This document shows positions 21,765 through 64,000 of a stretch of DNA of 64,000 nucleotides, piece after piece. Position numbers and translations under genes: made by a program. The stretch is taken from contig NC_049979.1 in assembly GCF_000003815.2 (NCBI RefSeq), forward strand, positions 33,443,506 through 33,507,505, read 5' to 3'. The DNA comes from Branchiostoma floridae (lineage: Eukaryota; Chordata; Leptocardii; Amphioxiformes; Branchiostomatidae). The number at the start of each line of letters is the position of its first letter. Position 1 is the first letter of the stretch. The notes beneath the pieces are model-generated. The model worked only from the letters and a program-made list of their open reading frames with translations. It was not told where the DNA came from and ran no database searches.

Positions 21765-24260
21765 GCTTAAGACCAAATACAGCATATTTCACCATACCCC
21801 TACCCAAGCAACATTGGACTGTTCCAGTTCACCCCTGCGCGAAAATGGAACATTTAAAACAGTAAAAGTGAACTAATATTGTGAATTGATTCCAGGCCGA
21901 AACGGGGCTGTACTATCCCAAATGTGCTCTATCCCAAAAGCGCTTTTAGGATAGAAGCACTTCTGGGATAGGCCTGCATCCTAAATGTGCTTCTATTCTA
22001 AAAGCGCTCTAAACCAGAGCGCATTCAGGATATCCCAGATGCGCTTCTTTGTCGCCGTCAATCATGGTGATTGACAGGACCGTAAGCGGCGATTGTTTCC
22101 ATATTTGGTTCGACCTCGCGATCGCGAGACGTCGCGACAGTCTACTTGCGATAATTGCGCTGAATGCTGGCTGATGTGCGAATTCCACCATTTAGAGTCA
22201 TTTATTCAAGACATCTTGTTACTGAAATAAAAACATGGAGGGACTGAATGTGATGATATATATCTGCAACAGTCTTTTTAGTTAGAGATGAAATTTCTCA
22301 AAGCCCTGTCGTACTGTATAGTAGCTTTTATTTCTCCTTCATGGATATGAAAAGAAAAGATGACACATCTTCTAATGGAAGTTATCTTTATTGCAAGTTA
22401 ATGCACAGATGTAATCATACACTGCGATATGTATACAGTGTACACAGATAATGGGACATTTATCAAACTTAATTCCATGCAGATTAAACACTATTTTGTC
22501 CTTTTGATTCTCACTATATCATTTTCATCAATCTAAATGTGCATGAAAGACACAAAAAGCAATTCTCAATAGTGCATCCCAAGACGTACTACAAAATGTA
22601 CCATATAAAATGTATTACAAAATGTACCATAATAAAACATGATGACAGTCAGTGAAAACGTCCAGCTGCACATTGATCAGCCATTCAGTTCCCAGGTTGT
22701 ATTCTATCGCAAAAGTGCTTCTGGGATAGAAGCAGATGTTCGTCTAACAAGAAAAGTATCTTGTCGTCTATCCTAAAAAGCGCTTCTGGGATAAAATGTG
22801 CTTCTATCCCAAAAGCGCTTCTGGGATATCCAGAATACGTCGCAAGCGAATATCCTAGAAGCGCTTTTGGGATAGAAGCACATTTGGGACAGATCTGCAT
22901 CCAAAATCTGCGTCTATCCTAAACGCGCTTCTAGGATATCCAGAACACGTCGAAAGCGAAGAAGCGCATTCTGGATATCCTGAATGCGCTCCTGTCGAAG
23001 GCGGCCGACATCTGTCTTCTCCTGTGCAGACTTTGTTAATGGCTTGCTGAATTTCAGCTTCTGATTTTGTTTCGAACTATCGAACCGGAGATAGCGATAC
23101 TACCTCGGTGTGTTGGGTCCATGCAGTCAACACGTCACGAGAAAATGGCAGCGGTCACTTCTGGCGATTGTTTACACCAAAGTTTACATATTTAGTTCGA
23201 CCTCGCGACACCTGCCGTAATCTACGTGATGGAAATACGCAGTTTATAAAGCAAGCGCTGAACCTAGATTTTACGTGATTATGTGAGGGTTAGATCGTGC
23301 CACGGAGTCCCCAAAAATGATTTGGTTTGTGCAAACTACGTTGATTTGGTGTAAGTATATGCGATCTACTATCACAATCAAACCCGGAAGTGACCTCGTG
23401 GGAGAACAAAGATGGCGGCCTCAGGTTGACTACGAAAAATCACATACAAGATAGTCTCCGCCTCCTAAGATATTAAGCTCCTCCCACAAGTGCACGTTCT
23501 GGATAAACACGTCGGCTTATCCTGAATGCGCTCCGACAGAAGCGCATTCAGGATATCCAGAATGCGCTCCTCGCTTGCGACGTGTTCTGGATATCCCATA
23601 AGCGCTTTTAGGATAGAAGCACATTTTGGATGCCGGTCTATCCTAAAAGCGCTTCTATCCTAAAAGCGCTTTTAGGATAAACGACATTCTAGGATGTAAC
23701 AGGGCTTACCCAATATGCCCCTGGCCCCTATGGATTAATGTACTCTTCCACAGGAGCTCCTTTTTATAGACAGTGAAAAAATCACCACACCTTCCATTCA
23801 TACAATTTTCATCATGAAATTACTGTGAAGCCATTCAACAATTTCCAGTACGATAACTAGGTCTAAGTACCGTTATAAGCTCTTTGTGATGCGGGTATAT
23901 TTATTATTGCAGTGAACTTTTTTTTTATTCAATCAGGGCATACCTTACCTTAGACCTAAGTTCCTCCCGCAACACCGTTACATTGGTCGACTCGGCGAGC
24001 ATACTTTCTCCAAACGGTGGAAAATTCTTGAGCAGCTTCTGCCATGCTTTCCATGTTTTAATAATTTTCAACAAGCAGATGCAGCTACTATGTAGGAATA
24101 GTATTTGTTTTCTTCCAGCTGAAAACTTTTCTTCGTCTTGTTTTGTTTGAGCCCTTACCTTTACTCTAGAATCTTTAAAAGAACACCTCAACTTATTGTA
24201 ACTTTATATATTTCATTCTCCTAAACTGTTCTACTTTGTTTGCGAGCAGCTATTCTTAGT
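21765..24260 (+). repeat. Dispersed repeat family R, copy 1 (split by a later insertion)
   Basis: The left part (CAAATACAGCATATTTC, GCAACATTGGACTGTTCCAG) and the right part (GCCCCTGGCCCCTATGG, CAGTGAACTTTTTT, TACTTTGTTTGCGAGCAGC) match copies at 26783-27470 and 31957-33130 in the same order. In copy 1 they are separated by the palindrome-rich element at 21910-23701. The right part runs into the 5' flank of monooxygenase copy A, and the equivalent sequence flanks copy B at 63840-64000. Confidence 0.75.
21910..23701. mobile_element. Palindrome-cluster element built from TATCC...AGCGCT motifs
   Basis: This 1.79-kb insertion splits repeat family R and is flanked by GGGCT on both sides (21905-21909; 23702-23706). 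Its ends, GTACTATCCCAAATGT and the complement of ACATTCTAGGATGTAAC, are imperfect inverted repeats. It has three dense blocks (about 21915-22040, 22700-23000, 23510-23700) of short perfect or near-perfect palindromes: TATCCTAAAAGCGC paired with its complement (24 bp, 23656-23679), GGATATCC, and GAATGCGCTC pairs. Two internal segments (about 22070-22150 and 23155-23235) are related (GGCGATTGTTT, TTCGACCTCGCGA). No transposase frame is seen. Confidence 0.75.
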
Positions 24261-24430
24261 ACAAAGTACATTTACAGAGCTAAAAGTTTCAAAACAACAC
24301 TAAGTTCGTCTGTTTGCACTTGTACGTCATCATGAGTCAGCATCCCGTGGCCCTTACTGTCAAGCAACAACATGACAGCCGGTTGCGGTGGAAACGCATA
24401 CGTCATACATCAAACATTTGTTACACAACC

Positions 24431-24454
24431 AAGGACTTTATATATAATGTCCTT
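24431..24454 (+). promoter_or_regulatory. TATA-bearing palindromic insertion upstream of copy A
   Basis: AAGGAC, a TATATATA core and GTCCTT form a near-perfect dyad about 45 bases before the ATG. Copy B lacks the whole stretch of about 33 bases: its flank passes directly from the CATACGTCATACATCAAA block into AACTGACCAAGC. The TATA core could act as a core promoter element specific to copy A, which is inference. Confidence 0.4.
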
Positions 24455-24487
24455 GACACAACTGACCAAGCTAGTACAACAGTCAGT

Positions 24488-27400
24488 ATGGCTAGAATTT
24501 TCCAGACTTTATGCGTTGTAGTTTTGGCCTTAGTCCCTCATCATGGGGGGCAGGCTATAGCTATAGGATCCGGTGATTTTACTCACCATGAGGCTCTAGA
24601 CGAGGAGGATAAGTTTCACCTGTTCTGGAAGTTTGATGAGGAGAAGATTGAGTTCGAAGCTCACGTGCAGACGACAGGATGGATCGGGTTGGGTCTATCC
24701 CCGAACGGAGGCATGCCGGGATCCGATATCGTCATCGGCTGGGTTAAAGACGGGACTGCGCACCTAACGGTACGTACCCCATCGTTATCGCTAGTTCACC
24801 TTTATTCGCGGGGTAACCTATATGCGTTGTATCTAAAAACATGCTATTTAGAGCTATGGAGTCAATGGACGCTGGTTTGAAATTGATATATTTTCGAAGC
24901 ATTGAAACCACCGGCCTTTGACTTGATAGCCCTAGATACTATAGTACCCTGCTTTAAAATACAACGGATATAGGTTGCCCCGCGGATAAAGGTGAACTAG
25001 CGTTAACTCGTAGGTATGCTGAACAACTTTCTATGCATTTCAGCAGTTCACATAATGATGACACGCTAGTAACTTAGGTTTGGCAATTTTAGTTGTTTTT
25101 TTTTATTTCTAGGGGCGACTGGCAGAATAATTAAATCTCTCAGCACTCTAGGCGAAGACACATATTACATAATGCCTCATCAAATATTGTCCGAAATATT
25201 TGCTTTGTATAACCCTTGAGAGTATTGTGTACTATTTCCTGTATTTTGTAGTGTTATTCATTGGTCGTATTGGTTAAATACTATTCGTCAACTCCTTGCA
25301 AGGAACCTGTTTATTTATTTTATTTATTTATTACACTTCCCATATAAAAATGGTGGGGAGACAAAACAGGTGAGATGCCACCTCTGCAAGTTGTCTCCCC
25401 GAGACAGAAAAATACACATTCAAGTAAACAATAAGAATCAGAAATGGTATACACAGTGATAATCGGAAACAAAATACAACTTATATACAAGATACACAAT
25501 GAATAGATACAAAATGAAACGATTAACGTGCTCTTGTTGCGAAGCACGTCGAATAGGAGCAGAACGACGCCCAAGTACACGGGGTGGCTGTATCTTAGAG
25601 CTGTGTGAATCGGTTGTGTAGGTGTTTTAACAACTGACGTTTGAAGGTAGATATGTGTGAGGAAAGTGGTGCCTTTAAAGCTAGATCTGAACGAAATATA
25701 TCCATAGAAATATGACTTAATAACTGGTGACAGGGATTTGAAGAGGTTGACTTGAGCCAGGTATGTCACGCTAAAGCACACATTCCGTCTCACACATAAA
25801 ACACTCTTGTCAACGTCCTGTAGGTATATTTGCTCTGTCTTTACATACAAACAGTATCGTCAACGAGTCATTTATTCCACGTACACTGTAGACAAGGGTC
25901 AATGAACTGTCGCAGCTTAAAATACATCGAAAGTTTACAGGTCACAAACAGCAAAATCACTGAAGCGTAGTAACCGTACCAGGCCCTACCTGGAACTTAG
26001 AAAATATTTGTTTTCGTTTAATTTTAAAAAGATCATTTTGTAATAGCTACAGATCACTAGAAGATATCAATTTGCGCAAATGTGAGTTTGTACATTTCAT
26101 CATTATGCACATGAAAACATAGTTGTATTGCAGTGGTATGTACACCAAAGTGCTGTATTTTCTCATATCATAGAAAACATAACATTAGGGGCAATAAAAC
26201 CTGATGACGTCATCAATAAGGCCCTCAAAAAATCAGATTTAGAATTCTTTCATCACCATCTATCAATATTCGTTACAGCTCCATTCTTTCTTAATTCATA
26301 AAGAAGAAAAACAATGGAATCTCTAAATGTCAATTTAGCCAGGTGAAATACCTTAATTCTAACACATGTGTGTGAATGACCAACAATAAACAATTTAACT
26401 TTGAACAGCAACAACTGGTTGTCCCAAAACCTAAGCGAGAGACCTTCAGAAGATCAATAGCCTACCCAGTGTTTGGAACAAACTACCACCAGACACACGT
26501 ACGGCTCTAAATCTGACCAGCTTTAAGAGACTCTTGAAGTAAAAGTAATTGTCCAAAACGAACGGACACGGACTATGAACACTGAGCTTCTTGCACCACT
26601 ATATGTTTTGTACCATGTATGTGTATGTGTAGTGATATAGGTTGAAGGATTTATTAGTACTCAATGTAATCTATATCTGTATTATATTTTATCTGACCCT
26701 GACCTCCCTCATGACCTCAATGAAATCGGCCTGCTGGCCGTTTGAGCTTCTCATGAATAAATAAAGGTTCAAACTAGAAAGGCCGACATTTGCTTAAGAG
26801 CAAATACAGCATATTTCAGCCATACCCCTTCCCACGCAACATTGGACTGTTCCAAATCACCCCTGCGCAAAAATGGAACATCCTCTTAACAGTACATTAT
26901 CCCCCAAAGTGGACTGGTATTGTGAATTGATTCCAAGTAAAAACAGAGCTTGCTTCTATTTTTCAGAAAATGACAATAATCACACCTTCCATTCAGAAAA
27001 TTTTCATCATGACTGAAAATTGTTGAATGACTTCATGTAATGTCATTAACAATTTTCAGTACGATAACTAGGTGTAAGTTTAAAAAAGTATAAGCTCCTT
27101 GTGATGTGGGTACATTTATTATTGCAGTGAACTTTTTTATTCAAGTAGGGCATACGATTTAATAATTATCAAGCAGGTGCAGGTACTGTAGGAGCGTTTG
27201 TTTTCTTCAAGCTGTAAAACTGTTAAACTGTTTGACTTTGTATGCAATCAGCCATCGAGCCTATTCTTATTTTAGTTGAACAACTTCCTGCCAGACCCGG
27301 AAGATACGATTGAACCTTGTTCGAGGATTTACTTTCGTCTGTCTGGTCAGTCTGTTCATACCCTGGCGCTGAGAGTGTTTTATTGGGCTGAAACTCTGGC

Positions 27401-30400
27401 AGTTTAAAGTTACTTACAATTTAAATGTTCAAAGTTTATGTCAAACAACAACAGCACTAGGAAATGTGGCCACTATAGACAGGTGGTCACTATAGAGAAA
27501 ATGCTGATCTATTGACTAGGAGCCATACGTTACACATGATTTCAGTACACTGATCATTAATCATACATGTATAAACATTGCACAGGTAAGCCAATTGTTT
27601 AGATGTACAATTAAGTTCAAATAATTCTGAAGAGAAATATTGATGAGAAAATAATCATTCTCGCCACTGTCTAACTTATAATTACGTATCAAAACTAAAC
27701 GCAGATTTTCTAACTAACGCACCTTTCGCCGACTTCATCAAAGGACCGCCGGCTATCAATCAAACACGGCTGTTGATTAGACTTAGAGCTTCAAACCGTC
27801 ATGTGCTGTGTGCCAGTTGACAGCAAACTTCATGCTACGTGATGTTTTACATTGCTTGGACCTTCTTTCCTACAGCGGTGCTTCTACAAAATATTTAGAC
27901 TGTAACACTGAGTCCCACATGTTTTATAGAATAGAATTTGACGCAGAACAGCGTTTTTTGCTGGGTATTTTTCTTGAAACATGTCCGTGGGAATATCAGC
28001 GAGGCGGCGACGTAGGGATATCAGACCATCAACAAAAGTCGCACGGCGGCTAACGGCGCAGCGAAGATACTAGCGCTATAAATAAGCGCTTCAACTAAGG
28101 ATGGCAACCCGTACAATATTTTTGTATACTGTTGAGCTAAGTAAAGTTTGTTGTTTTTGAGGTTTTAGTTGTCATTGAAGCTTTGACCCGAAATATTTTA
28201 AAGTCAAACTGCTGAAGAGAAGTAAGTGACTGCTACGATTATCGTAGATATGGCCCTAAAAAAACTGATAAAAGAAGCCTTCTCAATAGTCTAAAATGCA
28301 AGAGCTTCAGGGGGGGCTTCGCCCACCTGGGTCCCCCCCACAGTGGCCCTGCCCCTGGACCCCGCCTGGGACATTCGGCGGCCCCCGGACCCCTGTCCGA
28401 CGCTTTGAAAAAATCCTGGCGAGAAGTCTGTACGGCCTGAGTCTTCAAGTTAACGTATTGTGTGGTCCCGCTTATGAATATTAATTAGCCTTCGCTTTCC
28501 TCTTCGCTGATTGGCTGAACCATTAATTGAATGAACTCTTCCTGCCGGCTAGACGCAGGTGCAGATGTCGGCTCTGTGGGGTGAACGTCCGAAAGGTCAT
28601 GGCATGGAGAACGAAAGAAAACCAATTTCCCCTAAAAAAAAGTGCTGTAATTAAGCCTTTTACAGTACTTTATGCCAAAAATTTTACTTGGATCATTTTA
28701 CCAACTATCTTATGCCTATCTATACCAAATGTTACTCATACCAGGGTACAGGGGTGCAAAATATACCGTTATAAGACCGTCAACAACAGTCGCACGGAGC
28801 TAACAGCGCAGCGAAAATACCATCGCTAGCGTTTCAACTTCGGATAACAAGTTATAAGTACTGTTGAACTCAGTAACGTTAAAGTTTGTTTTTAGTTGCC
28901 TTTGACGGTTTGACATGAAATAGTGTTACGCTAAACTCCTGAAGAGAAGTTAAGTGACTGCTGCGATTATCATAGATATGCCCCTAAGAACTGATACAAT
29001 ATAAAGCCTTCTGAATAGTCTAAAATGCGAGAGCCTTAGGCGGGCTTCGCTCTCCCTGGCGGGAACACTGCTATATACGGGATCATGAGGCCCCGCTTAT
29101 GAATATTAATTAGCCTTTGGCCTCCTCTTCGCTGATTGGCTAGGTCTTTGATTCAATTAACTCTCCGGCTGACGCGCACAGGTGTGGCTCTGTGCGGGGT
29201 CACGGAAGGTCACGTCAGGAGGCCAAAAGAAAACAAATTTCCCCTCAGAAAAGTGCCAAAATTAATCATTCTAAAGTTGTTTATGTCAAAAATTTTACTT
29301 GAATCTTGTTACCAAGTATCTAATACCTATCTATACCAAATTTCAGGTCATTTAATTGTAATACCAGGGTACAGGAGCCAAAAGTGTCCTTTTTTGGTCA
29401 AAAATTGGCCAAAAATCGCAAAAATAAGCATTTTGTTGCACTGTACACCAAAAGTGTTATTGAATTTATATGAAGGGATTATCAAGGCACATCTGTGTCA
29501 AATTTCAGCTCATTCGGTTGCAATACCAAGGTACAGGAGCCAAAAGTGTCCTTTTTTGGTCAAAAATTGGTCAAAAAATCGCAAAAATAAGCATTTTGTT
29601 GTACTGTACACCAAAAGTGTTATTGAATTTATATGGGGGCATTATCAAGGCACATCTCTGTCAAATTTCAGCTCATTTGGTTGTAATACCAGGGTGCAGG
29701 GGCCAAAAGTGTCCTTTTTTGGTCAAAAATTGGTCAAAAAATCGCAAAAATAAGCATTTTGTTGTACTGTACACCAAAAGTGTTATCAAATTTATATGGA
29801 GGCATTATCAAGGCACATCTCTGTCAAATTTCAGCTCATTTGGTTGTAATACCAGGGTACAGGGGCCAAAATATACAGTTTTGGTCTAAAATTGACCAAA
29901 AAATCTCAATAAAATCATTTTAGAGGCAGATATGAAAAAACTGAGAAAAAAGCATCAAGGTATTGGCCCATTCTACCCCTGTGCCAAATTTCAGGTCATT
30001 CAGTCCAGGAACGGCGGAGATGAATCACTTTGAAGATTTGACAGGAGAAAGAAGAAAGAAAGAAAGAAAGAAAGAAGAAACATTACGAATACAATATATT
30101 TCACCATACTATGTATGGCTGAAATATAACAAACAAACAGGCAGCTCCCAGCCTCTATATAACTTGTAACATGCTGTATATCATTGCAGGACCGGTATGC
30201 TGAAGCCAAGGCAGAGCCCACTGTGGACGAGAGTCAGGACTGGGACCTGGTGTCTGGGTACGAGAACGGGACTCACACCGTCCTGAGGTTCAACAGGAAG
30301 CTGACGACATGTGACGAGAGGGATCGTGTCATTAACGTTAGTACTGACATCACAGTGGGAAAAATAGCTTCGCTAATTGCTATGTGTCGACAATAATAAT

Positions 30401-33400
30401 CTATAATAATCTTTATTGCAAGTTCATGCCAGAGGGCTAATTGCAAACAAAGTAAAGTAGTGGTATATATAATTGTATACTTTACAGAGAAGGAAAATTA
30501 GATCTATAGATAAATCAAAAGAGAAATAACGTCTAATCTATATCTATTTCTACTTAAAGCTATACTACGTAATTTTAAAGTATCCTATGCTATACTACGT
30601 AATTTTAAAGTATCCTATCTCAAATAAACACAACTATTTGCCTCTGTTTTAGACCAAGTTTGACAGTAGAAATTTTCGCTTTTGTTGTTTTCTTGGACCA
30701 GTATGCCTCTAAACACGTAAACGCCTGCCGGTATGATATGTTCATTTTCGAATCTGTCTAACATCCGGTCTACTGATTTTTTCGGGTCCGGTTTTTCTGG
30801 ATCGTTCAAACAAGAAAACCCGGTTTTGTACCGGTACATCGTATCGGTACCCACCCCTATTACATACATGTCGACAAATGTTTGCCGTACCAGGAGGATA
30901 GTAGTACCGTGAGTAGATAGATGTGTTGATAAATGCATGTCGACAAATGTTTACTGTACCCAGGAGGACACCATGCGTGTGATATGGGCGTGGCATGACG
31001 AGGACCCTGAAGACGAGTCTGGGGCGAGCGGCCCCACCTACCATGGGCCCAACAAGGGGGCCAGGGCTACCCTTCTTCTGGAACAGATCGTCCCGGACCA
31101 GACAACTTCAATAGGAACAGCCTACACCGTTGATCTCCTAATGAACAATGTAAGGTTTATCTTCTTTCACTTTATGCTGTCATCTTCGAAAGACAATCAG
31201 TGCCTTATAACGCTGGTTAACGTTCATCCGCGGGGTAACCTATATCCGTTGTTTCCTAAAACAGTACATCAAGTCGACACACAATTAAAACGGCAATATT
31301 TTGAAAAATGCAGTTTGCAATCACCGTCCGTCAATTTGATATCCTAAAATGCACAACGGATATAGGATACCCCGCTGATAAAGGTGAACTAGCGTTACAT
31401 CATATCTGGCATTGATGCGGTGAATACTTAATATTCAAAGATCGCGTGGCGTAATCGGCAGAGCTTTTGGCTCCGGCCCAAGAGGTACCGAGTTCGAAAC
31501 CTGACATGTCACCGATCTTGTATCCTTGGGAAATGCACTTTTCTCACTTCACTCAGGTGAAAAATGAGTAGGGCCATTCCTCGGATAGGACGTTAAATGG
31601 AGGTCTCGTGTTCGAGGAGATCCAAACCTCGAGCACATTAAAGAGCCCACCACACTTATCGAAAAGAGTAGGCATCGTTCCCGGTGTGAGTGGCTCAAAC
31701 CTACAGTCTGGTCTCCGGGTTGACATCTTGCAAAGGTGACAGTCACCTGTTATGTCAATCCTCCCACAAATGTGGAGAAACTGAGTTAAAAAATATCATC
31801 ACTATCATTTGCTTATAATAGTCAAGTTGACACTTCAACTTGTCAACTCATCACGTATTACACAGTTTTCTTACAATCACATAACGCTTGATAGGCAAAA
31901 ATATAACCATTAATTTTTCTACCTGATATAACGTTAGGACATTAACCGTAAACTAGAAAGGCCGACATTTGCTTGGGTGCAAATACAGCATATTTCAGCC
32001 ATACCCATTCCCACGCAACATTGGACTGTTCCAAGTCACCCCTGCGCAAAAATGCAATATTTAATGTAAGTTATCCCCAAAAGAGAACTAATATTGTGAA
32101 TTGATTCCATGTCAAAACAGAGCTTGCCCAATATGCCCCGGGCCCATATGGAAGAATATAATCTTCCACAGGAGCGCCTATGCATAACTGATTGGTTTTT
32201 AGAATTGCGGCAGCTCCTATTTTTCCGAGAGTGAAAAAAAAACGCATCTTCCGTTCAGAAGATTTTCGTCATGAAATTACATGACGCCATTCAACAATTT
32301 CCACTTCGATAACTAGGTCTAAGTACCGTCATAATCTCCTTGTGATGTGGGTGCATTTATTATTGCAGTGAACTTTTTTTTAAGCAAGTAGGGCATACGT
32401 TTTAATAATTGTCAGGTGCAGGTACTGTGTAGTAGGAGTGTTGTTGTTTTTTTCAAGCTAAAAACTTCAATCTTCTTCTTGTTTTGTATGAGCCATTACA
32501 TAAACGGAGACGTCTCGAAATTTTACAAGAATTTTACCACCCTGTCGCTTCATTTCTTTTCTGAAAAATCCCAGGACGAACAAGTTAACTTGATTTGGCT
32601 TTATCTATATATTTCATTTTCCTTCGAATTCTTTGTTAAGTATATGCCCCTGCATACCACTGTTAAATTGTTTTACTTTGTATGCAATCAGCCATCGGAC
32701 GTAATCTTGTCTGAGTGTTATAATTTGCTGCTCGTAGCGTGCGAGACCTGGAGGATAGGTGTTTCTACTTTGTTCGGGGGTTTCTTTTCGGAGGTCAGTG
32801 GTGATACTCTGGTATTGAGAGTGTTTTATTGGGCTCAAACTCTGGCAGTTTAAAGTTACTTACAATTTGAATGTACAAAGTTTACGTCAAAAAAGAACAA
32901 CAACAACACTAGAAGTACCTACATTTGTTCGGGGAAAAATACATGCATTCTCGCCACTGTCAAACTTACGTATCAAAACTAAACGCAAGCCGTCCAATTT
33001 TCCCTGTCCAAATCTGCCGAAAATGATTGATAGTGCCATGCGGAATGTTGGTAAATTCATCGACACTAACGTTCAATGCACGCGTACCGTCCGCTACCGC
33101 TCAAATGACCCTGTCTGAACTCCAAATCCTCGCAAACTACAATTTCAAACCCGGCAAAGGGGACCATATGGCCACTGTAAGGCTGTAATATGCATCTGTT
33201 TGTGTATATACGGGATTGCAAGGCCCCGCTTATGAATATTAACTAGCATTCGCCTTTCTCGTCGCTGATTGGCTGGCGTCCATAAAGTAATTATCTCTCG
33301 CTCTCCCCAGACCGCTGCCACCTGGCACGTGTGGGCTCTGGGGTCACTGGAGTTCACGGCAGGAAGCCGAAAGAAAACCAATTTCCCCTCAGAAAAGCGC

Positions 33401-43100: not shown

Positions 43101-43123
43101 GGACGGGTCTTTTGAAACTTAGA

Positions 43124-46643: not shown

Positions 46644-46789
46644 CCCAACTGCGACAGGGGTCCAAGGTAGTCCCCGTTTGTTTTGGATCAAGGAGTAAGG
46701 CGTTTGTGTGCCCAGGGGTTTAGCACGAATCTGGCATAAAATCTATTCAGTGGGACCTTGGGACAATTAATGGCAATTAATTGTTCCTG

Positions 46790-46935
46790 AGATCGCGTGG
46801 CGCAATCAGCAGCGCGTTAGGCTCAGGCCCAAAAGATCCTGATTTCGAACTCCGCCATGTCACTGATCTTGTGCCCTTGGGAAAGGCACTTTACACGACT
46901 TTCCTCACTTCACTCAAGTGAAAAATGAATATATA
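46790..46935 (+). mobile_element. tRNA-derived SINE, downstream of copy B
   Basis: Box A-like GTGGCGCAATCAGCAGCG and box B-like GATTTCGAACTCC are followed by TTGTGCCCTTGGGAAAGGCA. Arm A lacks it at the matching point near 42381, so it inserted after the duplication. Confidence 0.75.
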
Positions 46936-47232
46936 AGCTACAAAGTCTTCAGTCTTCAGCAAGTTGAAGTTGGTATCCTCAAACGAAAGAAGAAGAAGAA
47001 TGACAAGTCTATTTTCCAGTCTCTTTCCTTTCTGCGCTCTTTAACTGAGAGATAACTGAAGAATCGACGCAGTTCGGGGTGGGTGCGCCTTTTGTTTCTA
47101 ATGAAGAATTCTGTTTCTTTTCTACTGGGAACTTTCAAAGATCTCGCTTAACCACCCCAGGCTAGTGTTCCTATCAAGCTAAACTACTACCTAAACATAA
47201 CAATATTTCAGTCATGTCAGTTTTGCATATGC

Positions 47233-47238
47233 TTTATT
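47233..47238 (-). terminator. Polyadenylation signal of copy B
   Basis: AATAAA on the minus strand lies 86 bases after the TAA of copy B, homologous to 42123-42128. Confidence 0.6.
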
Positions 47239-47324
47239 CTCTTTGAACAAATAGTTCACTCTACTCCTGTGGCACTGATGGCTTTCCATTCGACGGTTGC
47301 CGTTCATGGAGGCCACCTTACGTT

Positions 47325-53300: not shown

Positions 53301-56300
53301 AGACATAGTTTTCAAATCAAGGGTTAAAAGGCCTTGAAGATTGCAGAGAAGGGTTTTTCTAAGTTGGTTGTAGTTAGGGCAGTACAATAAATAGTGGACA
53401 ACGCTTTCACATCGGGAGCCACAGCTACAAGAAGGACTATCGATTAAATTACGTGTATATAAGCTAAAGTTCAAACTACAGGTCCCGATGCGGAGGCGTG
53501 TGAATAAAACGCAGGCGTACCTGGGGCCGTGACTAAAATGTGTGTTAGGGGAAGGGCGAACCAATTTTATTACGTAGTTTTTGAATGTTGAAGGATTAAA
53601 TGACCTTACAGCTATATCAAGACCATTCCAGTGATATGTAGAATACGGAATAAAGGACCTTTGGTAACGAGTTGTGGTACAAGTCGGTGGCTGTAAATTG
53701 TGTTTGTTACGAAGGTTGTACACTCGTTCTCATTGAAATGTCGAAAATGCCATTTTTTTGGTCGAAAAATAAATCGGCTTCATTTTCAGTGAAAACTACC
53801 TGGTTCTTTAGGAAAATTCCTCTTTTAACCAAAGCCAAAAAATGGCAACTTATTATTTTCGGTCCCATTGGTAATACATTACAGGGCATGTAACAAACGT
53901 TACCGGTAACGTTTGTTACAACAGTAAACTTAACCCTGTTTTCTTCTAAAGGACTTACCTTATTGACTACATCATTTAGGTATAAGTGGATGTCCCATGG
54001 AACATTTGAAAAGTGGGCAGCTTTTTACACCAGGTCAAATAGAAAGCTTAGACAGCATGGAACAATGGTAACGTTTGTTACAGTCATTTCCGTGCAACAT
54101 TTTGTTAAGCAAGGTGGGATACAAATAACAGTCAACAACCCTTTCTTGTTTCTTTAGGAAGCCAGAAAAACTGTACAGCGTCACAAAAATGGTCATTTCC
54201 AGTCTTATACGTGAATAATAAAACCGTGGCAACCATCGTACTCGTGGTGGTAACGTTTGTTACAGAATCTGGCGACAGGCATAAACCACCTCACACAGCC
54301 TCCAAGATCAGTGACAGGAGCGATCTGACGTGATCGTGCAGAGGGCCTTGGTAGCTGGTTTCACCTGCCGAACAATCATTCTAGGAACTGAATTGTTACA
54401 TTTTTGGCTATTATTTGAATTCTTCGTTTCTTCTCAGGCGACAGCCATTTTTTAGGGTGTGAAACCCGACTCGTGGCTATAATAACCGTTTAAGCCATCA
54501 ACCAATACGAATGTTGTTGTGCATCTTTTGTAAAACATTACAGGGAATATGGAAAAATGAAGGAGCCAGTGATATTGTCTATAATTTTCTCCATATCAAG
54601 CCGTAAAGTCAGGCGACAGCATTTCGACATTAAAATGAGAACGAGCCTGTAGGGAGTAGAGGCAGAGACTTCAGGAGTGATCAACTCCTGAAGATACTGA
54701 CGAGTGTGACCATGAACAGTTTTATGAAACATTGACAAAGAGTGAATATGGCGACGGTCAGACAGTTTTCCCACCCAAGTTCAGAAAGGAGTGACAAATA
54801 TGAGGATCCTCTCACAGCACCAGATACTGTGAGTGAGCAATCATATTGTACTCTCTCTATACGTCGGGAGTCCGATATAGTGCAGCCATGCCATACTATG
54901 TCGGCGTATTCAAGAAGTGGACGAATGAAGGACTTGTAGATAACTTCGAGTACATGTCGTGGCAATTTAAATTTAAGTTTGTTCAGTGTGGACACACGTT
55001 TTGATACTTTGGCAATCATGTGTGTAATATGTTTTTCCCAAGACATGGTGGACGTGAGAAAAACACCAATGTGCTTGTGGTCTTTTACAGATTGAATGAC
55101 ACAGTTGTCAAGAAAAGGGGGAGGATGGCAAGGGGGATCGATTTTCCTGGAAAAACACATTTCCTCAGTTTTTAAAGGATTCAGTTTCATAAGCCACGTG
55201 GAAGCCCAAGATGATATCTTACTAAGATCAGAATTTAGACTTGACGCAGTTTTGGTTGGGCTATCCACTATATCTACTAAAGAACTATCATCTGCAAAGA
55301 GAAATGGGCAAGATGATAAATCGTCCACCATATCATTGATGTAAACAAGAAATAAGAGGGGGCCTAATACAGAACCCTGTGGTACGCCTGCGCGAATATT
55401 ACACCAATCTGAGTGCTGGCCATCTATAACTACTCTTTGTACACGATCAGAAAGATAGCTGTGGAACCAATTTAGGACCGGACCCTCGACCCCATTTCTT
55501 TGAAGCTTGAAAATAATGCCCTTATGCCAAACTTTGTCAAATGCACGTGAAAAATCTAAATAAACCGCTCGGACCTCTCTATTAGAGTCAAGAGCTTCAA
55601 GAATTTTGTCAGTTACACAAACAAGTTGGCCTACTGTTGAATCTCCACGGATAAATCCAGACTGGAGAGAATATAATAAGTTTTGGGACATCAGGTGGTT
55701 GTACAAGTGTTTAAATACATTTTTTTCAAGGATTTTAGACAAACAGGGGAGTAGGGATACAGGTCGGTAATTCGACACATCCTCGGGGTCCCCCTTTTTG
55801 AAAATTGGTACCACATTTGCTCTTTTCCAGGATTCAGGGAAGACTCCGTGATTTAGAGACAAGTTAAAAACATATGCAATTTTGTCAGAGATATAGGGAC
55901 ATATGGATTTAAGAAAACGATTGTCTACATTATCATAGCCACATGCTTTAGATACTTCTAAATCTGAGACATAAAGTTCTATCTCAGCAGCTGATGTAAC
56001 ACACTGTGTAAGACGAGCACTAGTAAGGAAATCAAGGGGTGGAAGTCTAGCACTGTAGTCATCCACTGAGGCCTGAGAAGAGAAATACAAATTAAACATA
56101 GTTGCCTTTTCTCTTGAATCGGTTATAAAACAGTTGCCATACTTAAGCGGTGGAATAGTAGAATTAACTTTACTTTGGTAGAAATGTTTCACAATGTGCC
56201 ACCACTTTTTGTTGGATGAGGGGGGACTACTTAAGGAAGCAACCAGGCGGTTGTGATAATTAGACTTGGCTAGTGATAACTGATGGACAAGTTTATTTCT

Positions 56301-59300
56301 AATAAGACGATATGAAGACCAATGAATAGGGCTGTTCGTTAACTTGGCTTTCTTATGCAACTTGTCTCTCTGGTGCATTAAGCGTCTAATGTCAGGTGAA
56401 ATCCAAGGTTTGTCACGAGGTCTAACGAGAATGTCCTTATGAGGCACACTTTTAATTTTGGCTTCCAAAATCAGTTCCATCAACTTCTTGCTAGCTTCTT
56501 CAACAGTATCACAATAGAAAACTTCATGCCATATTGGCTCAGACGAGAAGAGTGCCAGCAAGCTGTGATCGGTTTTGGAATAATCCCAGATGGTACGGAC
56601 ATAAGGACGAGGGGGCCTGAGTGACAAGTTAATAGTAGCGACAATAGGGCTATGGTGGCATCCGGAGAGGGGAGATAACACAGAGGTAGACTTGATAAGT
56701 TTTTCTCGTTGATGAATAGAAGGTCAATCAGGGAGGGAGACCGTGACAAATCGCACGTTGGCTCCTTTATCACCTGTGTGAGATTTAACATTTTAGAAGC
56801 TTGCAATAGTTTTGTGCCGACCGAAGTGATTGGGTCATGGGCCCACCATGCCTCGTGTTTGGCATTAAAGTCACCTGTGACAATGATGCCATCGTGTTGA
56901 GAGGATTCAGCTGTGAATACTGAGTCACTAAACAAGTCAACAAATTCATCAACAGTTTTGGAATCCTGGCCAGGTGGCCGGTAGTAGACAGAAAAGAGTA
57001 AACGGCTGCGTCCTACAAAGAGTTCAAGCCAAATGCATTCGACAGACGGTGATTCCAGATCTAAGCGTCGCTTGTACGCTATCTGGTCAGATATGTAAAT
57101 GAGGACACCGCCACCATGCCTATTTCTGTCACGACGGACTGGCAACTGAAAACCGTCAAGAGAAATTGCAAAAGAATCAACAGGATCTCCCAACCAAGTT
57201 TCTGATACAGCAATAACATCGAGGTTGAGTCTAACAGCTAGGGCAGATAGTTCGTCCATCTTAGTGCCAGCCAGTAAGGCATTGCAGCAAGAGTCAACCC
57301 TGTGTGGTAGGGTGGAAACTGCAAATTGTACCAGATGCACACGGACTTGGTTTTCTATAGCCAGGTAAAACTCATGACCAAAGCCAGATTGTTCTCCGTC
57401 TGTACTTACCGCGTTCAAGCACTGCGAGTTGCAGAATCCTGCTGATGTAAACTCGGGGACACGTGGAGGGACGACGTGGTACTTGTTCACCAGCACCCCC
57501 ACCTCTAAGGTTCCCAGGTCATTGTCCCTCAGCTCGGGCGTGTATGTCAGTCTGATGCCTGAACTGTCCTGGATACCTGTGTGCGCGGGGGGTAACATAT
57601 AATGTTACCTTGACGAATTCTCGGAAAATATTTATCTGGGAAAAATTAAGCAGTCGTCGCACATATTTTTCTTAACGTGCTAGACTAAGTGATCATTCTA
57701 ATGAGGAAGGTAATCTATCATGTCACGTTTCAAGGAGGTTTCAATCAGAATGTATAGTCCATTGAGGTCAAGGATTAGATTACATTTTTGTCCAGCAAAT
57801 GCCTCATCTGACTCTTACAAGTCAGAAAGGTAGTTGCTTGACCAAAAGTAAAGTTTATGGGGTTCATAGATGGCCAGGAATATAGCAGTGATTTTTGCAA
57901 TTATTACATCGATTAAAACAAACAACGTGCATCATCGTGCAACTGAGTGCAGACGACATGCGAAACTACATACGAATGCGGCAAAGGGAAAATAGAGATA
58001 CAGATGCAAACACTCATCACATCTGACAAAAACAATACTCTGTCATCGGAGGTTACCCTCCGGTCACAGAGTAACAATGGACCATAAAGGAGAAGCCATA
58101 CCCTTCACGAATACTACATGTGAACGAGCGTTGCCGAAGGCTTCTCAGTGAAACAAGAAATAAAAATAAATGTGATCCGGAAAGGTTTTGAAGCAGTCAT
58201 CGATTTCCAAACTTCTATGGAAAACTCTGACCTGAAGTCAACAGAGGGTTGTCGTAGTGCATCTCCATCAGTACGTAACCACTGTCGTCTTCGTCACCGA
58301 TGGGATAACCAACATGCTCGGGGTAAACCTGATCCTGGAGACCAAAAAGAAGTGATCATGACTTGTTAAAAACAGCTGCAGTGAGAAACGCTACCTACAC
58401 GGATGTGCAGAGAAAAAGTACGAACGTTATGTGATACGCACGAATCTTATATGATACGCATTCTTTTACGTAAACCTCCGTAGCGGTCCGCCGGCTTCTG
58501 TATGTGTATCTGTATCTACATGTGTATAGTCGGTATAAATGGCGTAACACACCAGCTTCGCAGGCATTCGGCGCGTCAGCAGCTTGTTATATTAAGCTGA
58601 AGGACCTGTCACGCTTAATTTGCAAGTATTCTTTAAAACTATCCACCGAAGATGCTCCTACGTTTGCATAAAAAGACTGCGTAACTCATGTGTGAGATTC
58701 GTGCGGATCACATAAGGTTCGTTAACGTTTTCGCATGGTGCGTTTTTTTATAAGATTCGTACTGCAAATTCGAGCGAATACTTATTCAGCATCCCTTCAT
58801 CTATTATATCGGACCACATGGAGTTCAAACTTGTTCCTACCCCAGAGCCGATGGCCCATGCCACAAGGATGCTTCCCTGATAACACTCCCTCCAGTCGCT
58901 GGGCATGTTGGGAGTATAGCACTCATGTCCCGGATGTCCCTCTGGCATGATGGTCATGTTCGGGTTCTTCTTACAGGTGTAGACCAGCAAATGGTGAACC
59001 GTACCTTCGTTCCCAGGTTGAACGATTGCTTCAGCCTAAAGTTAAAGAGAGAGAGAGAGGAGAGAGGGGGGGAGAGAGGGAGGGAGAGAGAAGGGGAGAG
59101 AAGAGAGAAAGAGAGAGAGAAAGAGAGAGAAAGAGAGAGAAAGAGAGAGAAAGAGAGAGGGGAAGGAGAGAAGAGAGAAAGAGAGAGGAGAAAGAGGGGG
59201 AGAGGACAGAAAGAGAGAGGGGGACGGAGAGAGAAGAGAAAGAAAGAGAAAGAGGGGCAGGGGAGAAATGGAGGGAGAGAGAGGAGAGAAAAAGAGAGGG

Positions 59301-62300
59301 AGAGAGAGGAGAGAAAGAGAGAGGGGAGAGAGAGGGAGGGATAGAGAAGGAGAGAAAGAGAGAAAGAGAGAGGGGGAAGGAGATTAAGAGAGAGAAAGAG
59401 AGAGGGGCAGGGGAGAAAGAGGGAGTGAGAGAGAGGAGAGAGAGGATAGAAAGAGAGGGAGGGAGAGAGATAGGAGAGAAAGAGAGAGGGGAGGGGAGAG
59501 AGAGGGAGGGAAATAAATGAACTCTTTTTTGACACAGCGACTTTCGTAAGGTTTATAAACTACTTACTGCATATATAAACACACACATATAAATATCTAT
59601 CGATAGGAATAAGTCAACATATTGAGTCTAGCGTGGCATTTTCACTATCGTTCTGCGGTATAAACATTCTTTGGTAGTGGGCAAATAATGTTGTTAAATT
59701 TATCTATCGAATAGAAAGTAGGAAATTCTTTAGAGCAAGCGGAAAGAAATGTGCACAGCCTTGTGTGTTTATCATTAATGCTAGTTCACCTTTATCCGCG
59801 GGGTAACCTATATCCGTTGCTTTAAAAAACAGCGTTTTAGGGCTATCATGCGAAATGTGAGTTCAAACTGCTATATTTTGAAAATATTACAATTCGAAAC
59901 AACCGTCCGACGACTTGATATACATAAATGTGCTGTTTTGAAAAACAACGGATATAAGTTACCCCACAGATAAAGGTGAACTAGCGTTATCACACGCCCG
60001 TACCTTTATAACGTGGTGTTTGCCGCCCAGCTTAGGCATCTCAAACACATGGCACCAGTACGTCGTGTCTTGATTAGGAATTGTGACCTGGTGACATGTA
60101 AATTATAAAGTTGTAAAGTTACAAGATATTAAGTGTAACAGTCACACATTCAATAACATGCTGGTACCCTAGTTCCATGTGTATCTCCTTTACGGTTAAA
60201 ATCCTAAAGTTATATCAGATAGAAAAATTAATGGTTATATTTTTGACTATCAAGCGTTAGCTATGTCGTGTCAAAGATATTGCATGGGATGGTGACTGCT
60301 ACTGTGCACTGGTTACAGCTCTAATTTCTACAATGTTTTGATTGTAATTAACTGTGTAATATGTGGTGAGTTGACAATTAAGTTGAAGTATCAATTTGAC
60401 TATTGTAAGCAAATGATACTTTTATTCAGTTTTACCACATTTCTGGAAGGATTGACATAACAGGTGAATATCACAATTGCAAGATGTCAACCCGGAGACC
60501 AGACTGTAAGGTTTGATCCACTCATGCCGGGAAGGACCCCTACTCTTTTCAATAAGTGCGGTGGGTGCTCGAGGTGTGGCTCTCCCCGAACAAGTACGGG
60601 ACCTCCATTTAACATCGTATCCGAGGAATGGCCCTAGCCTAAGCCATGTACTCATTTTTCACCTGAGTGAAGTTAGGAAAGTGCCTTTCCCAAGGACACA
60701 AGACACACCTCTTGGGCCTGAGCCCAAAGCGCTGCCGATTACGATCTTTGAAGATTGTTTAGACTTACGCAGAATTTATCTATTCTCCAAGCAGAGGTTG
60801 GTTCACGGGGATTAGATAGTAGTGGCCTGGATTTTTACCTGCTCGCTTCCCTCCCAGTGTATCAAGAATTTTAATTTTGATTTGAGTTTTCATCGCATGA
60901 ATGTCAGACATGATGGCATGAATGTTAGGACTGTTTGTCTTTCGAAGATGACAGTAAAGTGAAAGAAGATAAACCTTACATTGTTCATGAGGAGATCAAC
61001 TGTGTAGGCTGTTCCTACTGAACTTGTCTGGTCCGGGATGATCCTCTCCAGAAGAAGTGTAGCCCTGGCCCCCTTGTTGGGCCCATGGTAGGTCGGGCCG
61101 TTCACCCCAGACTCGTCTTCAGGGTCCTCGTCATGCCACGCCCATATCACCCGCAAGGTGTCGTCCTGGATACGGCAAACATTCGTCGACATGTATGTAT
61201 CAACACATCTATCTACTCACGGTACTACTATCCTCCTGGTACGGCAAACATTTGTCGACACGTATGTTATCGGGGTGGGTATTGGTACGATGTAACATAA
61301 CAGGTACAAAACCGAGTTTTCTTGTTGGACCGATCCAGAAAAACCGGACCTGAAAAAAATCAGTGAACCGGATGTTGGACAGATTCGAAAATGAACATAT
61401 CAATCCGGCTGGCGTTCACGTGTTTTGAGGCTTACAGGTCCAAGAAAATAACAAGAGCGAAGTAGAGGTGATTGTCATTTTTACCAAGTTTCTACAGGGA
61501 AACTTGGTCTAAAACAGAGCCAGTTAGTTTTGTTTACATGAAGATAGGATCCTTTAAAAACGCCAATGGACGTCGGACACTGCATCAAACAGAATCCTTT
61601 GTAGTGAAATGGACCATTGTTTTGAGTATAGCCCATTCACAAAATTTTCACAGATAGGTTCAGGTTCGGACCTGGACCTGATCCTCTGGAACTGGACCGT
61701 CGCTGCACCTGAATTTTTCTGTACCGGTACCAACCCCTAGTATGTAACATTACTAACTCGGTATCTATTCACAATTCTACTATCGACACATAGCAATTTG
61801 CGAAGCTATTTCTCCCACAATGACATCAGTAACGTTACGTACGTTGATGACGCGATCCCTCTCGTCACATGTCGTCAGTTTCCTGTTGAACCTCAGGACG
61901 GTGTGAGTCCCGTTCTCGTACCCAGACACCAGCTCCCAGTCCTGACTCTCGTCCACAGAGGGTTCTGCCTTGGCGTCGGCATACCGGTCCTGCAATGGTA
62001 TATAGTATGTTACAACTAACAGGGAAGCTTGAGAGCAGAATGGTGTTTTGATATTCCTCTCTTTTCTGTTCAACTGTTCGTTTATTTTTGGTCACTCGTG
62101 AACACGCATGTGTTAACATGTACACTAATAGCAACAGTGGCCCATGGCTAGTCGGGCCTAGTACGGTTAAGGCGGAATCTCACTGCACTTGCGTCAAGCT
62201 TGCGCCATTGCGGGGTTCGTTCTCTGTGTCAATGTTTTGTTATTTTCACCGATTTTTTTAATTATTTAGATATTGCGTAATACGTAAAAGTATGACATAG

Positions 62301-63600
62301 AAGACGACAAACTACACAAAAAGTAAGAGAATTCGTTCTTTATCTCTGAAATTCGTCTAGTATCTTTCGAACTCCGCAGTGACGCAAGCGTGACGCAAGT
62401 GCAGTGAGATACCACCTTACGCTCCAGTGATTTTATTGTTTGTGACCTGTAAAATTTTGATGTATTCAAAGCTGTGACAGTTCATTGACCCTTATCTGCG
62501 TGGAATAAATGACTAACTGACGATACTATTTGTATTTGTATTTGTAACGGCAGAGAAAATAAACCTACAGAACTTTGACCAGGCCAGGGTGTTTGACAGG
62601 GGAGGCGGAATGTGTGCTTTAACATGTCATATCTGGCTCAAGTCAACCATTTCAAATCCCTGTAACCAGTTATAAAGTCATATTTTTCTGGATATATTTC
62701 GCTCATATTTAGCTATATAGGCACAACAGGTTCCTTGCCGGTAGTTGACGAATAGTCTTCAATCAATACGACCAATGAATAACTACAAAACGCAGGAAAT
62801 CGTACACAATACTATTAAGGGTCATAAAAAGCAAATGTTTCGGACTTTATTTCGCCTAGAGTGCTGTGAGATTTAATTATTCGGCCAATCCTCCCTAGAA
62901 AAAACCTAAAACTATCTGTATCTGTATAGCTGGTATAACCGCCCTTCGGTGTAACACACCAGCGTAACACACTTTCTGTATCCATATAGCTGGTATAACC
63001 GTCTTTCGGCGTAACACACCAGCTTCGCAGGCACGCGGTGCGGCAGTAGCTGGTTACCAGTATATTACACCGAAAGACCCGTCACACCTAACTTTTGCAT
63101 ATCTATCTCTCTTTTGCATATATATCTAGTTTTAAGAAGTGTTCTTTAAAACTACATGACATATCTAGCTCAAGTAAACCTCTATAAAAGGGCAAAGTGC
63201 AAATACCAAACCTAGGTTACTAGCGTGTCATCATTATGTGAACTGCTGAAATGCCTCGATAGTCGTTTCGCATGAGGAGATAGATGCAACACCTGGTAGC
63301 TATCGGTGGGGTACGTACCGTTAGGTGCGCGGTCCCGTCTTTAACCCATCCGATGACGATATCGGATCCCGGCATGCCTCCGTTCGGGGACAGACCCAAC
63401 CCGACCCATCCTGTCGTCTGCACGTGGGCTTCGAACTCAATCTTCTCCTCATCAAACTTCCAGAACAAATGAAACTTATCCTCCTCGTCTAGAGCCTCGT
63501 GGTGAGTAAAATCACCGGATCCTATAGCTAAAGCCTGCCCCCCATGATTGGGGACTAAGGCCAAAACTATAACACAAAAACTCTGGAAGATTCTAGCCAT
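47325..63600 (-). CDS. MOXD1-like: DBH-like (MOXD1-like) copper monooxygenase, copy B, 12 exons
   Basis: Minus-strand exons: 63600-63319, 61989-61843, 61165-60980, 60087-60004, 59035-58841, 58334-58232, 57576-57410, 52470-52285, 51399-51340, 50597-50464, 48116-47933, 47507-47325. They join to 636 residues with the same phases as copy A. Exon 4 is one codon shorter and exon 11 two codons longer. Six of 94 residues differ in exon 1. The signal peptide, DOMON (WVGLGLSPNGGMPGSD) and both copper domains are present. The ligands are conserved: HH at 247-248 (VHHLLVYTC), H324, H405/H407 and M479. No stop or frameshift was seen, so both paralogues look functional. Intron 7 is about 4.9 kb because of nested transposons, and intron 10 carries a 1.76-kb element; intron 1 is 1.3 kb against 5.4 kb in copy A. 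The gene faces copy A tail to tail. Function as for copy A: secretory-pathway copper monooxygenase, substrate unknown. Confidence 0.93.
48661..50424. mobile_element. 1.76-kb DNA transposon with 8-bp target duplication, intron 10 of B
   Basis: Flanks GCTGAGAC (48653-48660) and GTTGAGAC (50425-50432) are 8-bp duplicates with one change. In arm A the site is single (GTCTCAAC at about 40699). The terminal repeats read CGGTGTACCGAAAGTGCG and, at the other end in reverse, GGGTCTACCGAAAGTGCG. Both subterminal regions (48661-48915; 50140-50424) are packed with CGAAAAGGAACG repeats in both directions. No transposase is recognised. The 8-bp duplication fits hAT-like elements. Confidence 0.85.
51726..51847. 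mobile_element. 122-bp MITE with TACCCCGTCAC perfect ends
   Basis: TACCCCGTCAC and GTGACGGGGTA are exact inverted repeats with TA at the borders. The inner sequence (GCCTCCTCGTAATTTAGAGC) is shared with 911-1036. Confidence 0.85.
52011..52256 (-). mobile_element. 5S-rRNA-derived SINE (SINE3-like) with GGATAA target duplication
   Basis: The minus strand begins CGTTGGTACATCCGATC, then CTCGGAAGTTAAGCAACG (5S box A-like, 52214-52226) and CTTGGATGGGGGACC (5S box C-like, 52184-52197). A non-5S body and a (TTATTA)n-like tail follow. GGATAA flanks it at 52005-52010 and 52257-52262 within the MITE. The internal promoter order is that of 5S rRNA genes, but the 3' half is unrelated, so this is a SINE, not a 5S gene. 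Confidence 0.8.
53721..54647. mobile_element. 927-bp DNA transposon (CACTCG ends, TGTA duplication) inside the LINE
   Basis: TGTA at 53717-53720 and 54648-54651 flank it. The ends CACTCGTTCTCATTGAAATG and (reverse) GGCTCGTTCTCATTTTAATG are inverted repeats of about 28 bases. It splits the LINE frame at a point where the two halves agree in phase once one TGTA copy is counted. No transposase is seen. A 4-bp duplication with CAC ends suggests a Chapaev/CACTA-like relative, which is tentative. Confidence 0.85.
53889..53920. repeat. Perfect 32-bp palindrome and recurring GGTAACGTTTGTTACA
   Basis: TGTAACAAACGTTACC meets its exact complement. The half-site GGTAACGTTTGTTACA recurs at 54065-54080 and 54249-54264 in the same element. 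It is probably a transposase binding motif or hairpin. Confidence 0.85.
58375..58770. mobile_element. Foldback element, intron 5 of copy B
   Basis: It shares ATGTGATACGCACGAATC, CGTAAACCTCCGTAGCGG, AACACACCAGCTTCGCAGGC and GCGTTTTTTTATAAGATTCG with the element at 35425-35880, in reverse. Confidence 0.75.
59041..59515 (+). repeat. (GA)n-rich tract of 475 bp: polypyrimidine tract of copy B exon 5
   Basis: The tract is almost pure purine on the plus strand (GAGAGA, GGGAGA) and directly abuts the minus-strand acceptor (CTTTAG then GCTGAAGC). It is three times the length of the copy A tract. Confidence 0.9.
59780..59990. mobile_element. MITE family M, copy 5, intron 4 of B
   Basis: GCTAGTTCACCTTTATCCGC, GGTAACCTATATCCGTTGC and their complements at the right (CAACGGATATAAGTTACCCC, GATAAAGGTGAACTAGCG). 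It is not at the same place as any arm A copy. Confidence 0.85.
60419..60745 (-). mobile_element. tRNA-derived SINE, intron 3 of copy B
   Basis: On the minus strand: GATCGTAATCGGCAGCGC, CTTGGGAAAGGCACTTTCC, GTCTCCGGGTTGACATCTTG. It corresponds to 31440-31795, and the box B region is deleted here. Confidence 0.75.
62164..62427. mobile_element. MITE with TCTCACTGCACTTGCGTCA ends, intron 1 of B
   Basis: GGAATCTCACTGCACTTGCG, GCTTGCGCCATTGCGGGGTT pair with AACTCCGCAGTGACGCAAGC, GACGCAAGTGCAGTGAGATA over about 50 bases. Confidence 0.85.
62925..63160 (+). repeat. Dispersed repeat with tandem AGCTGGTATAACCG units
   Basis: TATAGCTGGTATAACCGCCC and TATAGCTGGTATAACCGTCT stand about 60 bases apart. 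Then AACACACCAGCTTCGCAGGC, GTAGCTGGTTACCAGTAT and a tail TAAGAAGTGTTCTTTAAAAC. Related segments form the middle of the foldback elements at 35550-35760 and 58490-58650. Confidence 0.7.
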
Positions 63601-64000
63601 ACTGACTGCTGTACTACTGCTGTACTGCTTGGTCAGTTATGTAAGAAATATTTGATGTATGACGTATGCGTTTCCAAAGCAACAGGTCATGTCAGGATGA
63701 TTGACAGTGAGGGCCCTGGGATAGCCATACAGGGAGATGGAACAATGAGTCATGATACTGAATCATGATGACGCACAAGCACAAACAGACGAACTTAGTG
63801 TTATTTTGAAACTTTTAAGTGTGTACAATGCACTCTGTACTAAGAATGGCTGATCGCAAACAAAGTAAAACAGTTTTAAATGAAATATATAAAGCTAAAT
63901 CAAGTTAAGGTGTTCGTCCTGGGATTTTTTTCATAAAGCGACGGGGCGGTAAATTAAGAAAAATTGAAAATGTCTAGAGTAAAGGTGGGGGCTCAAACAA

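What the first reader, a model, noticed from the sequence alone, without database searches (positions are those of the whole stretch)
24146..64000. Tail-to-tail inverted duplication with two intact 12-exon copper monooxygenase genes
Every exon of copy A has a phase-matched partner in copy B on the opposite strand, and both frames run from signal peptide to stop. The arms are about 19 kb each with a 2.7-kb spacer and run off the right edge. Protein divergence of about 6 percent in exon 1, two codon-length changes and different intron insertions argue for paralogues rather than two alleles misassembled in opposite orientation, but the latter is not excluded.
Basis: partly seen in the sequence, partly recalled or inferred. 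Interest (0 to 1): 0.8.

Follow-up and report, generated by a model that had tools for sequence, protein, structure and literature searches.

The report
Inverted pair of copper monooxygenase genes
Two complete, slightly different copies of an enzyme gene related to dopamine beta-hydroxylase sit tail to tail in what is most likely a lancelet genome, an ordinary recent gene duplication whose inner edge hints at how it formed.

Summary
Copy A (+ strand, 24488-42037) and copy B (- strand, 63600-47325) each splice into an open 12-coding-exon gene (635 and 636 aa) with GT-AG at 22 of 22 introns and matching phases. Both have DOMON and both Cu2-monooxygenase domains, six of six copper ligands of human DBH, a hydrophobic start and a hydrophobic C-terminal tail. 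They share 587 of 634 aligned residues; dS 0.13, dN 0.04; aligned intron sites differ by 10.8%. Matches to mir-2060, a microRNA named in amphioxus, point to a lancelet. Silent divergence is about two to three times published amphioxus synonymous diversity, and protein identity (92.6%) lies below that of 11 allelic globin pairs, on a stretch without gaps, so paralogues are far likelier than misassembled alleles; reads are still needed. The 2.7-kb spacer is bounded by inverted copies of a dispersed repeat, which suits, but does not prove, formation by fold-back at inverted repeats. Verdict: real, an ordinary young duplicate in a known family; low to moderate interest.

The parts
24143..43120 (+). 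Arm A of the inverted duplication (outer end as far as homology can be followed before the window's right edge cuts its partner)
45836..64000 (-). Arm B of the inverted duplication; still homologous at the window's right edge
43121..45835. Spacer of about 2.7 kb; no match to the arms among the rows listed, but an internal direct repeat 44619-44877 / 45451-45711
24488..42037 (+). Gene A, 12 coding exons (24488-24769, 30190-30336, 30964-31149, 34091-34177, 35162-35356, 36730-36832, 37809-37975, 38616-38801, 39921-39980, 40532-40665, 41264-41441, 41855-42037), 635 aa
47325..63600 (-). Gene B, 12 coding exons (63600-63319, 61989-61843, 61165-60980, 60087-60004, 59035-58841, 58334-58232, 57576-57410, 52470-52285, 51399-51340, 50597-50464, 48116-47933, 47507-47325), 636 aa
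42720..43120 (+). Copy in arm A of a dispersed repeat, ending in a few minisatellite-like units; inner edge of arm A
45836..46687 (-). Inverted copy of the same repeat in arm B with a minisatellite of about 41 bp per unit (45849-46402); inner edge of arm B; matches Rfam mir-2060
52964..57278 (-). Insertion in intron 7 of gene B only (ends approximate): non-LTR retrotransposon with endonuclease and reverse transcriptase domains, A-rich tail, flanked by a direct repeat of 9-11 bp

Best explanation
This is a genuine segmental inverted (tail-to-tail) duplication, most likely in a lancelet, that made two paralogous genes for a DBH-like copper monooxygenase. Shown: the inverted structure, two open frames, the metal ligands, and fewer replacement than silent changes overall. 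Inferred: both proteins enter the secretory pathway, are held to the membrane by the C-terminal hydrophobic tail (GPI-type signal, as described for MOXD2), and hydroxylate an unknown substrate with two type-2 coppers and ascorbate. Inferred for the origin: a broken or stalled DNA end folded back at inverted copies of a dispersed repeat and was copied back through the gene, leaving the 2.7-kb loop as an unduplicated spacer; this step I put at about 0.3. The split is roughly ten million generations old if the amphioxus mutation rate applies. Insertions and deletions then made the introns unequal. The confidence given is for two paralogues in true inverted order.
For: Inverted collinear match; exons, phases and splice sites intact in both copies; Pfam DOMON, Cu2_monooxygen and Cu2_monoox_C above cut-off in 2 of 2 proteins; phmmer of copy A to human DBH 4zel E 1.3e-90; ligands at H248, H249, H325, H406, H408, M480 in A and H247, H248, H324, H405, H407, M479 in B (motif positions), facing DBH His262, His263, His333, His412, His414, Met487 (matched by eye). 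dN/dS 0.30, Fisher p 4e-9 on rounded counts. Introns differ at 10.8% of 4,275 aligned sites. No N between the arms. LINE present in B only, with a flanking direct repeat. Spacer bounded by inverted copies of one repeat, third copy at 19.4 kb; in human inverted duplications 21 of 21 sequenced junctions have an unduplicated spacer, median 3,428 bp, and 3 of 21 have inverted LINE or SINE repeats at the edges (PMC3907307).
Against: No reads, depth or second individual could be examined, and the own-genome search did not complete. Fourfold-site divergence (22 of 269, 8.2%, uncorrected) is only about twice the mean synonymous diversity reported for B. floridae, so a very divergent haplotype pair is not excluded by divergence alone. 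Coding constraint is uneven: dN exceeds dS in exon 6 (0.084 versus 0.078), is 0.72 of it in exon 12 and about half of it in exon 11. The outer end on the right is out of view. The repeat copies at the inner edges could simply be part of the duplicated segment, so they do not prove fold-back; no jump in divergence marks a switch point there.
Confidence: 0.85

Rival explanations
1. Two divergent alleles of one gene were placed in opposite orientation in one scaffold by the assembler, joined through the minisatellite repeat.
For: Amphioxus heterozygosity is given as 3.2-4.2% (PMC12862219), and high heterozygosity can lead to alternative haplotypes being assembled as separate loci (PMC9673378). 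A minisatellite, a plausible place for a false join, lies at the inner edge of arm B. The globin paper reports one gene pair whose orientation in the draft assembly disagreed with paired reads (PMC3087553).
Against: Silent divergence about two to three times the reported mean; protein identity 92.6% against 95-100% for 11 allelic globin pairs; no N between the arms; a false join would also have to supply a 2.7-kb spacer without a partner in the arms.
Confidence: 0.1
2. A true inverted duplication, but one that is polymorphic in the population: some chromosomes carry one gene, others two. This is a version of the best explanation, so the two confidences overlap.
For: No direct evidence; nothing here excludes it.
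Against: At about 11% noncoding divergence the duplication is old relative to mean allele age, so fixation is likelier (inference).
Confidence: 0.15
3. One copy is a decaying pseudogene.
For: dN exceeds dS in exon 6 and is high relative to dS in exons 11 and 12; B carries a LINE in intron 7.
Against: No stop, frameshift, lost splice site or lost copper ligand in either copy; overall dN/dS 0.30.
Confidence: 0.05

Closest known systems
Dopamine beta-hydroxylase (human DBH, PDB 4zel)
   Same: DOMON plus two copper domains; six copper ligands; ten cysteines facing DBH cysteines of intramolecular disulphides, matched by eye
   Different: No cysteine between residues 496 and 565 of copy A, where the DBH interchain cysteines C528/C530 lie; ends in a hydrophobic tail; substrate unknown
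MOXD2 / MOXD1 (monooxygenase, DBH-like)
   Same: Same domains; MOXD2 has an N-terminal signal peptide and a C-terminal GPI signal, like the two hydrophobic ends here (PMC4125168, passages)
Peptidylglycine alpha-hydroxylating monooxygenase (PHM)
   Same: Shares the two copper domains (1opm, E 9.1e-14)
   Different: The match starts at residue 196, after the DOMON part, and is far weaker than that to DBH
Human fold-back inverted duplications with unduplicated spacer
   Same: Inverted arms, spacer of a few kb, in some cases inverted repeats at the spacer edge (PMC3907307, passages)
   Different: Those are large rearrangements in patients, with terminal deletions, translocations or rings; here an old one of about 19 kb, with no such loss tested

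Membership tests
Copper type II ascorbate-dependent monooxygenase family | Both Cu2_monooxygen and Cu2_monoox_C domains | tested here: met
   Both above Pfam cut-off in 2 of 2 proteins
Copper type II ascorbate-dependent monooxygenase family | Three CuH and three CuM ligands | tested here: met
   6 of 6 in both copies, read against the human DBH alignment by eye
DBH/MOXD branch (not PHM) | N-terminal DOMON domain | tested here: met
   DOMON E 1.7e-34 and 6.8e-35; the related CDH-cyt domain also matches weakly, 1.5e-7 and 2.9e-7
DBH proper | Interchain cysteines C528/C530 | tested here: not met
   No cysteine between residues 496 and 565 of copy A or 495 and 566 of copy B; the alignment to DBH is weak in that stretch
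DBH proper | Hydroxylates dopamine | not testable with these tools
   Needs an assay
MOXD type | Membrane attachment by a C-terminal tail | tested here: inconclusive
   15-residue windows at the C terminus reach Kyte-Doolittle 2.13; no GPI predictor was run
MOXD type | Groups with MOXD sequences in a tree | not tested
   No MOXD sequence was at hand; the solved-structure search listed DBH and PHM only
Fold-back inverted duplication | Unduplicated spacer between the arms | tested here: met
   About 2.7 kb, no match to the arms among listed rows; copies outside the window could not be searched
Fold-back inverted duplication | Inverted homology at the spacer edges that existed before the duplication | tested here: inconclusive
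   Inverted repeat copies lie at both edges but may be part of the duplicated segment; an unduplicated relative is needed

The most novel reading that the evidence does not exclude
A dispersed lancelet repeat that carries the mir-2060 minisatellite served as the inverted-repeat primer for this duplication, and the same repeat may have seeded other inverted gene duplications in lancelet genomes.
Probability: 0.2. Interest if true: 0.45.

Novelty: new member of a known kind. Interest (0 to 1): 0.25.

Why it matters
It is a clean, datable example of an inverted gene duplication with both copies open and the spacer preserved, probably in an animal group whose high heterozygosity makes recent paralogues hard to tell from alleles. 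It could serve as a test case for that problem and for how inverted duplications start, but neither the gene family nor the arrangement is new.

Tried and rejected
Recent gene conversion between the arms: weak at best. Noncoding divergence in 18 windows of up to 300 aligned sites ranges from 0.067 to 0.143, heterogeneity p 0.015, with low values around 35.4-37.7 kb, 30.8-31.5 kb and 42.3-42.9 kb; the longest identical run is 103 sites, against a median of 68, a 95% value of 92 and a maximum of 120 in 500 shuffles. Not claimed.

Further copies of the gene in the window: 0 of 48 tblastn matches at E up to 1 failed to overlap one of the 24 exons.

tRNA genes: none found. Own-genome copy number: not completed. 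No structure was predicted, because the spliced protein is not a contiguous translation of the window and the tool asks for that; no folding call was made.

Literature on this gene pair or on DBH-like expansion in amphioxus: the lists (14, 10 and 7 papers) show no title on it; the library holds open papers only. One search (12 of 55 listed) gave the MOXD2 paper; (12 of 55 listed) the fold-back papers; (10 of 62 listed) the amphioxus microRNA papers. Of papers cited, passages were seen for PMC9673378, PMC4125168, PMC12862219, PMC3087553, PMC3907307, PMC10766186 and PMC5650284; passages and one section for PMC4846438. PMC2728532 (passages) held no mention of 2060 in its main text, and PMC5359183 held neither term asked for; neither is used. 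Other papers were seen in search listings only.

Full report
What was checked. The window was compared with itself on opposite strands. A collinear series of inverted matches joins 24181-43108 to 63915-46300. A further 28-base match, 24143-24170 with 64000-63973, 26 identical, carries the homology to the window's right edge; on the inside it ends at about 43120 and 45836. The spacer is about 2.7 kb.

The genes. Translating conserved blocks in both copies and placing splice sites by eye gave 12 coding exons per copy, GT-AG at 22 of 22 introns, matching phases, and open frames of 635 and 636 aa. Exon 4 differs by one codon and exon 11 by two. Intron lengths differ greatly: intron 1 is 5,420 versus 1,329 bases, intron 7 is 640 versus 4,939. 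Untranslated exons were not looked for.

What they encode. Both proteins carry DOMON, Cu2_monooxygen and Cu2_monoox_C. The best solved relative of copy A is human DBH (4zel, E 1.3e-90), then PHM. The six copper ligands named for DBH (section 8 of PMC4846438) are present in both copies (matched by eye on the alignment). There are 13 cysteines in each, one in the signal-peptide region; by eye ten face DBH cysteines named in its intramolecular disulphides, the last two lie beyond the alignment, and the two interchain cysteines of DBH have no partner. The six most hydrophobic 15-residue windows listed for each protein all lie at its N or C terminus. MOXD2 is described with the same domains, a signal peptide and a GPI signal (PMC4125168, passages), so a membrane-anchored MOXD-type enzyme is the likeliest reading; no signal-peptide or GPI predictor was run, no MOXD sequence was compared, and the substrate is unknown.

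Divergence. 587 of 634 aligned residues are identical; 108 of 1,902 aligned coding bases differ; Nei-Gojobori dS 0.131 and dN 0.040, ratio 0.30; 22 of 269 fourfold sites differ (8.2%, uncorrected); introns differ at 10.8% of 4,275 aligned bases, Jukes-Cantor 0.117. Synonymous against nonsynonymous change: Fisher p 4e-9 on rounded counts. The pair as a whole has thus been under coding constraint; by exon it is uneven, with dN above dS in exon 6 (0.084, 0.078), 0.047 against 0.065 in exon 12 and 0.086 against 0.170 in exon 11 (few sites per exon). Without an outgroup the two copies cannot be judged separately.

Which animal. Three stretches of a minisatellite at the inner edge of arm B reach the Rfam threshold for mir-2060; in a permissive local search 5 of 6 mir-2060 matches pass it. 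A mature B. belcheri miR-2060c is printed in PMC5650284 (passage), the one paper that a search for mir-2060 listed, and its first 19 bases occur 11 times in the window with at most two mismatches. That mir-2060 is confined to amphioxus is my recall. I take the window to be from a lancelet, species not determined.

Alleles or paralogues. B. floridae synonymous diversity is given as 0.0397 and amphioxus heterozygosity as 3.2-4.2% (PMC12862219, passages). Allelic copies were found for 11 of 15 B. floridae globins and share 95-100% of residues (PMC3087553, passages). The pair here is more diverged: 2.1 times that diversity by raw fourfold sites, 3.3 times by dS, and 92.6% in residues. It is also in reverse order on a stretch with no N; the only gap in the window is at 5380-5479. 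Different insertions in the introns add little, since lancelet alleles also differ by insertions (recall). Against this, a globin pair is reported whose draft-assembly orientation conflicted with paired reads, so such errors happen. I put paralogues in true inverted order at about 0.85.

After the duplication. An insertion with endonuclease and reverse transcriptase domains lies in intron 7 of B only; read by eye, both flanks carry AATGCCTTACT, next to an A-rich tail on the 3' side, so the target-site duplication is 9-11 bp. It entered B after the split or was lost cleanly from A; the former is simpler.

How it may have formed. Both arms end inside a dispersed repeat: 42720-43120 in A and its inverted partner 46687-45836 in B; a third, more distant copy lies at about 19.4 kb. 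In human inverted duplications 21 of 21 sequenced junctions have an unduplicated spacer, 766-70,466 bp with median 3,428; 3 of 21 have LINE or SINE repeats in opposite orientation at the edges, 13 have short microhomology and 5 have insertions (PMC3907307, passages). The structure here fits that picture. An alternative replication model, ODIRA, also yields inverted copies with spacers (PMC10766186, passages). The repeats may instead be simple passengers; the choice cannot be made from one sequence. [quoted passage not shown] this assumes the B. floridae rate and ignores ancestral polymorphism.

Verdict. The finding is right and its main interpretation is supported. It is an ordinary kind of event in a known gene family: tandemly duplicated genes are reported to be more abundant in B. 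lanceolatum than in vertebrates (PMC9673378, passages).

Noticed in passing
45849-46402 (-), also 42778, 43089 and 19441 (+): The sequence that Rfam names as the microRNA mir-2060 is here a unit of a roughly 41-bp minisatellite inside a dispersed repeat; hairpin matches from two searches overlap in different registers. The miRNA family may be repeat-derived or a repeat artefact.
   Followed up: partly
24786-25006, 31207-31397, 33823-34050, 59776-59989, 51673-52279: A short element with inverted ends (CGCTAGTTCACCTTTATCCGCG) was found five times, each time within 58 bases of a splice site of these two genes; random placement in their introns gives this with probability about 1.5e-5. The cut-off was chosen after seeing the data, and the fifth copy is pieced from separate matches. 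An insertion preference near splice sites is worth testing genome-wide.
   Followed up: partly
52154-52270 (-): 5S rRNA-like sequence in intron 8 of gene B, within the fifth copy of that element, 37.3 bits against a cut-off of 38, perhaps a 5S-derived SINE.
   Followed up: partly
11981-13771 (+): Open frame of 597 codons with a reverse transcriptase domain, another retrotransposon.
   Followed up: no
4514-4873 (-) and 19749-20291 (+): Two open frames on opposite strands that look alike by eye; no Pfam match. Possibly another duplicated gene to the left of the finding.
   Followed up: no
34408-34869 (-) and 45045-45452 (-): Two open frames, one in intron 4 of gene A and one in the spacer, that look alike by eye and resemble the C-terminal end of retrotransposon proteins (recall); no Pfam match.
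   Followed up: no
29337-29921: Tandem array of a 163-bp unit, 3.6 copies, in intron 1 of gene A; one search lists no such array in intron 1 of gene B.
   Followed up: no
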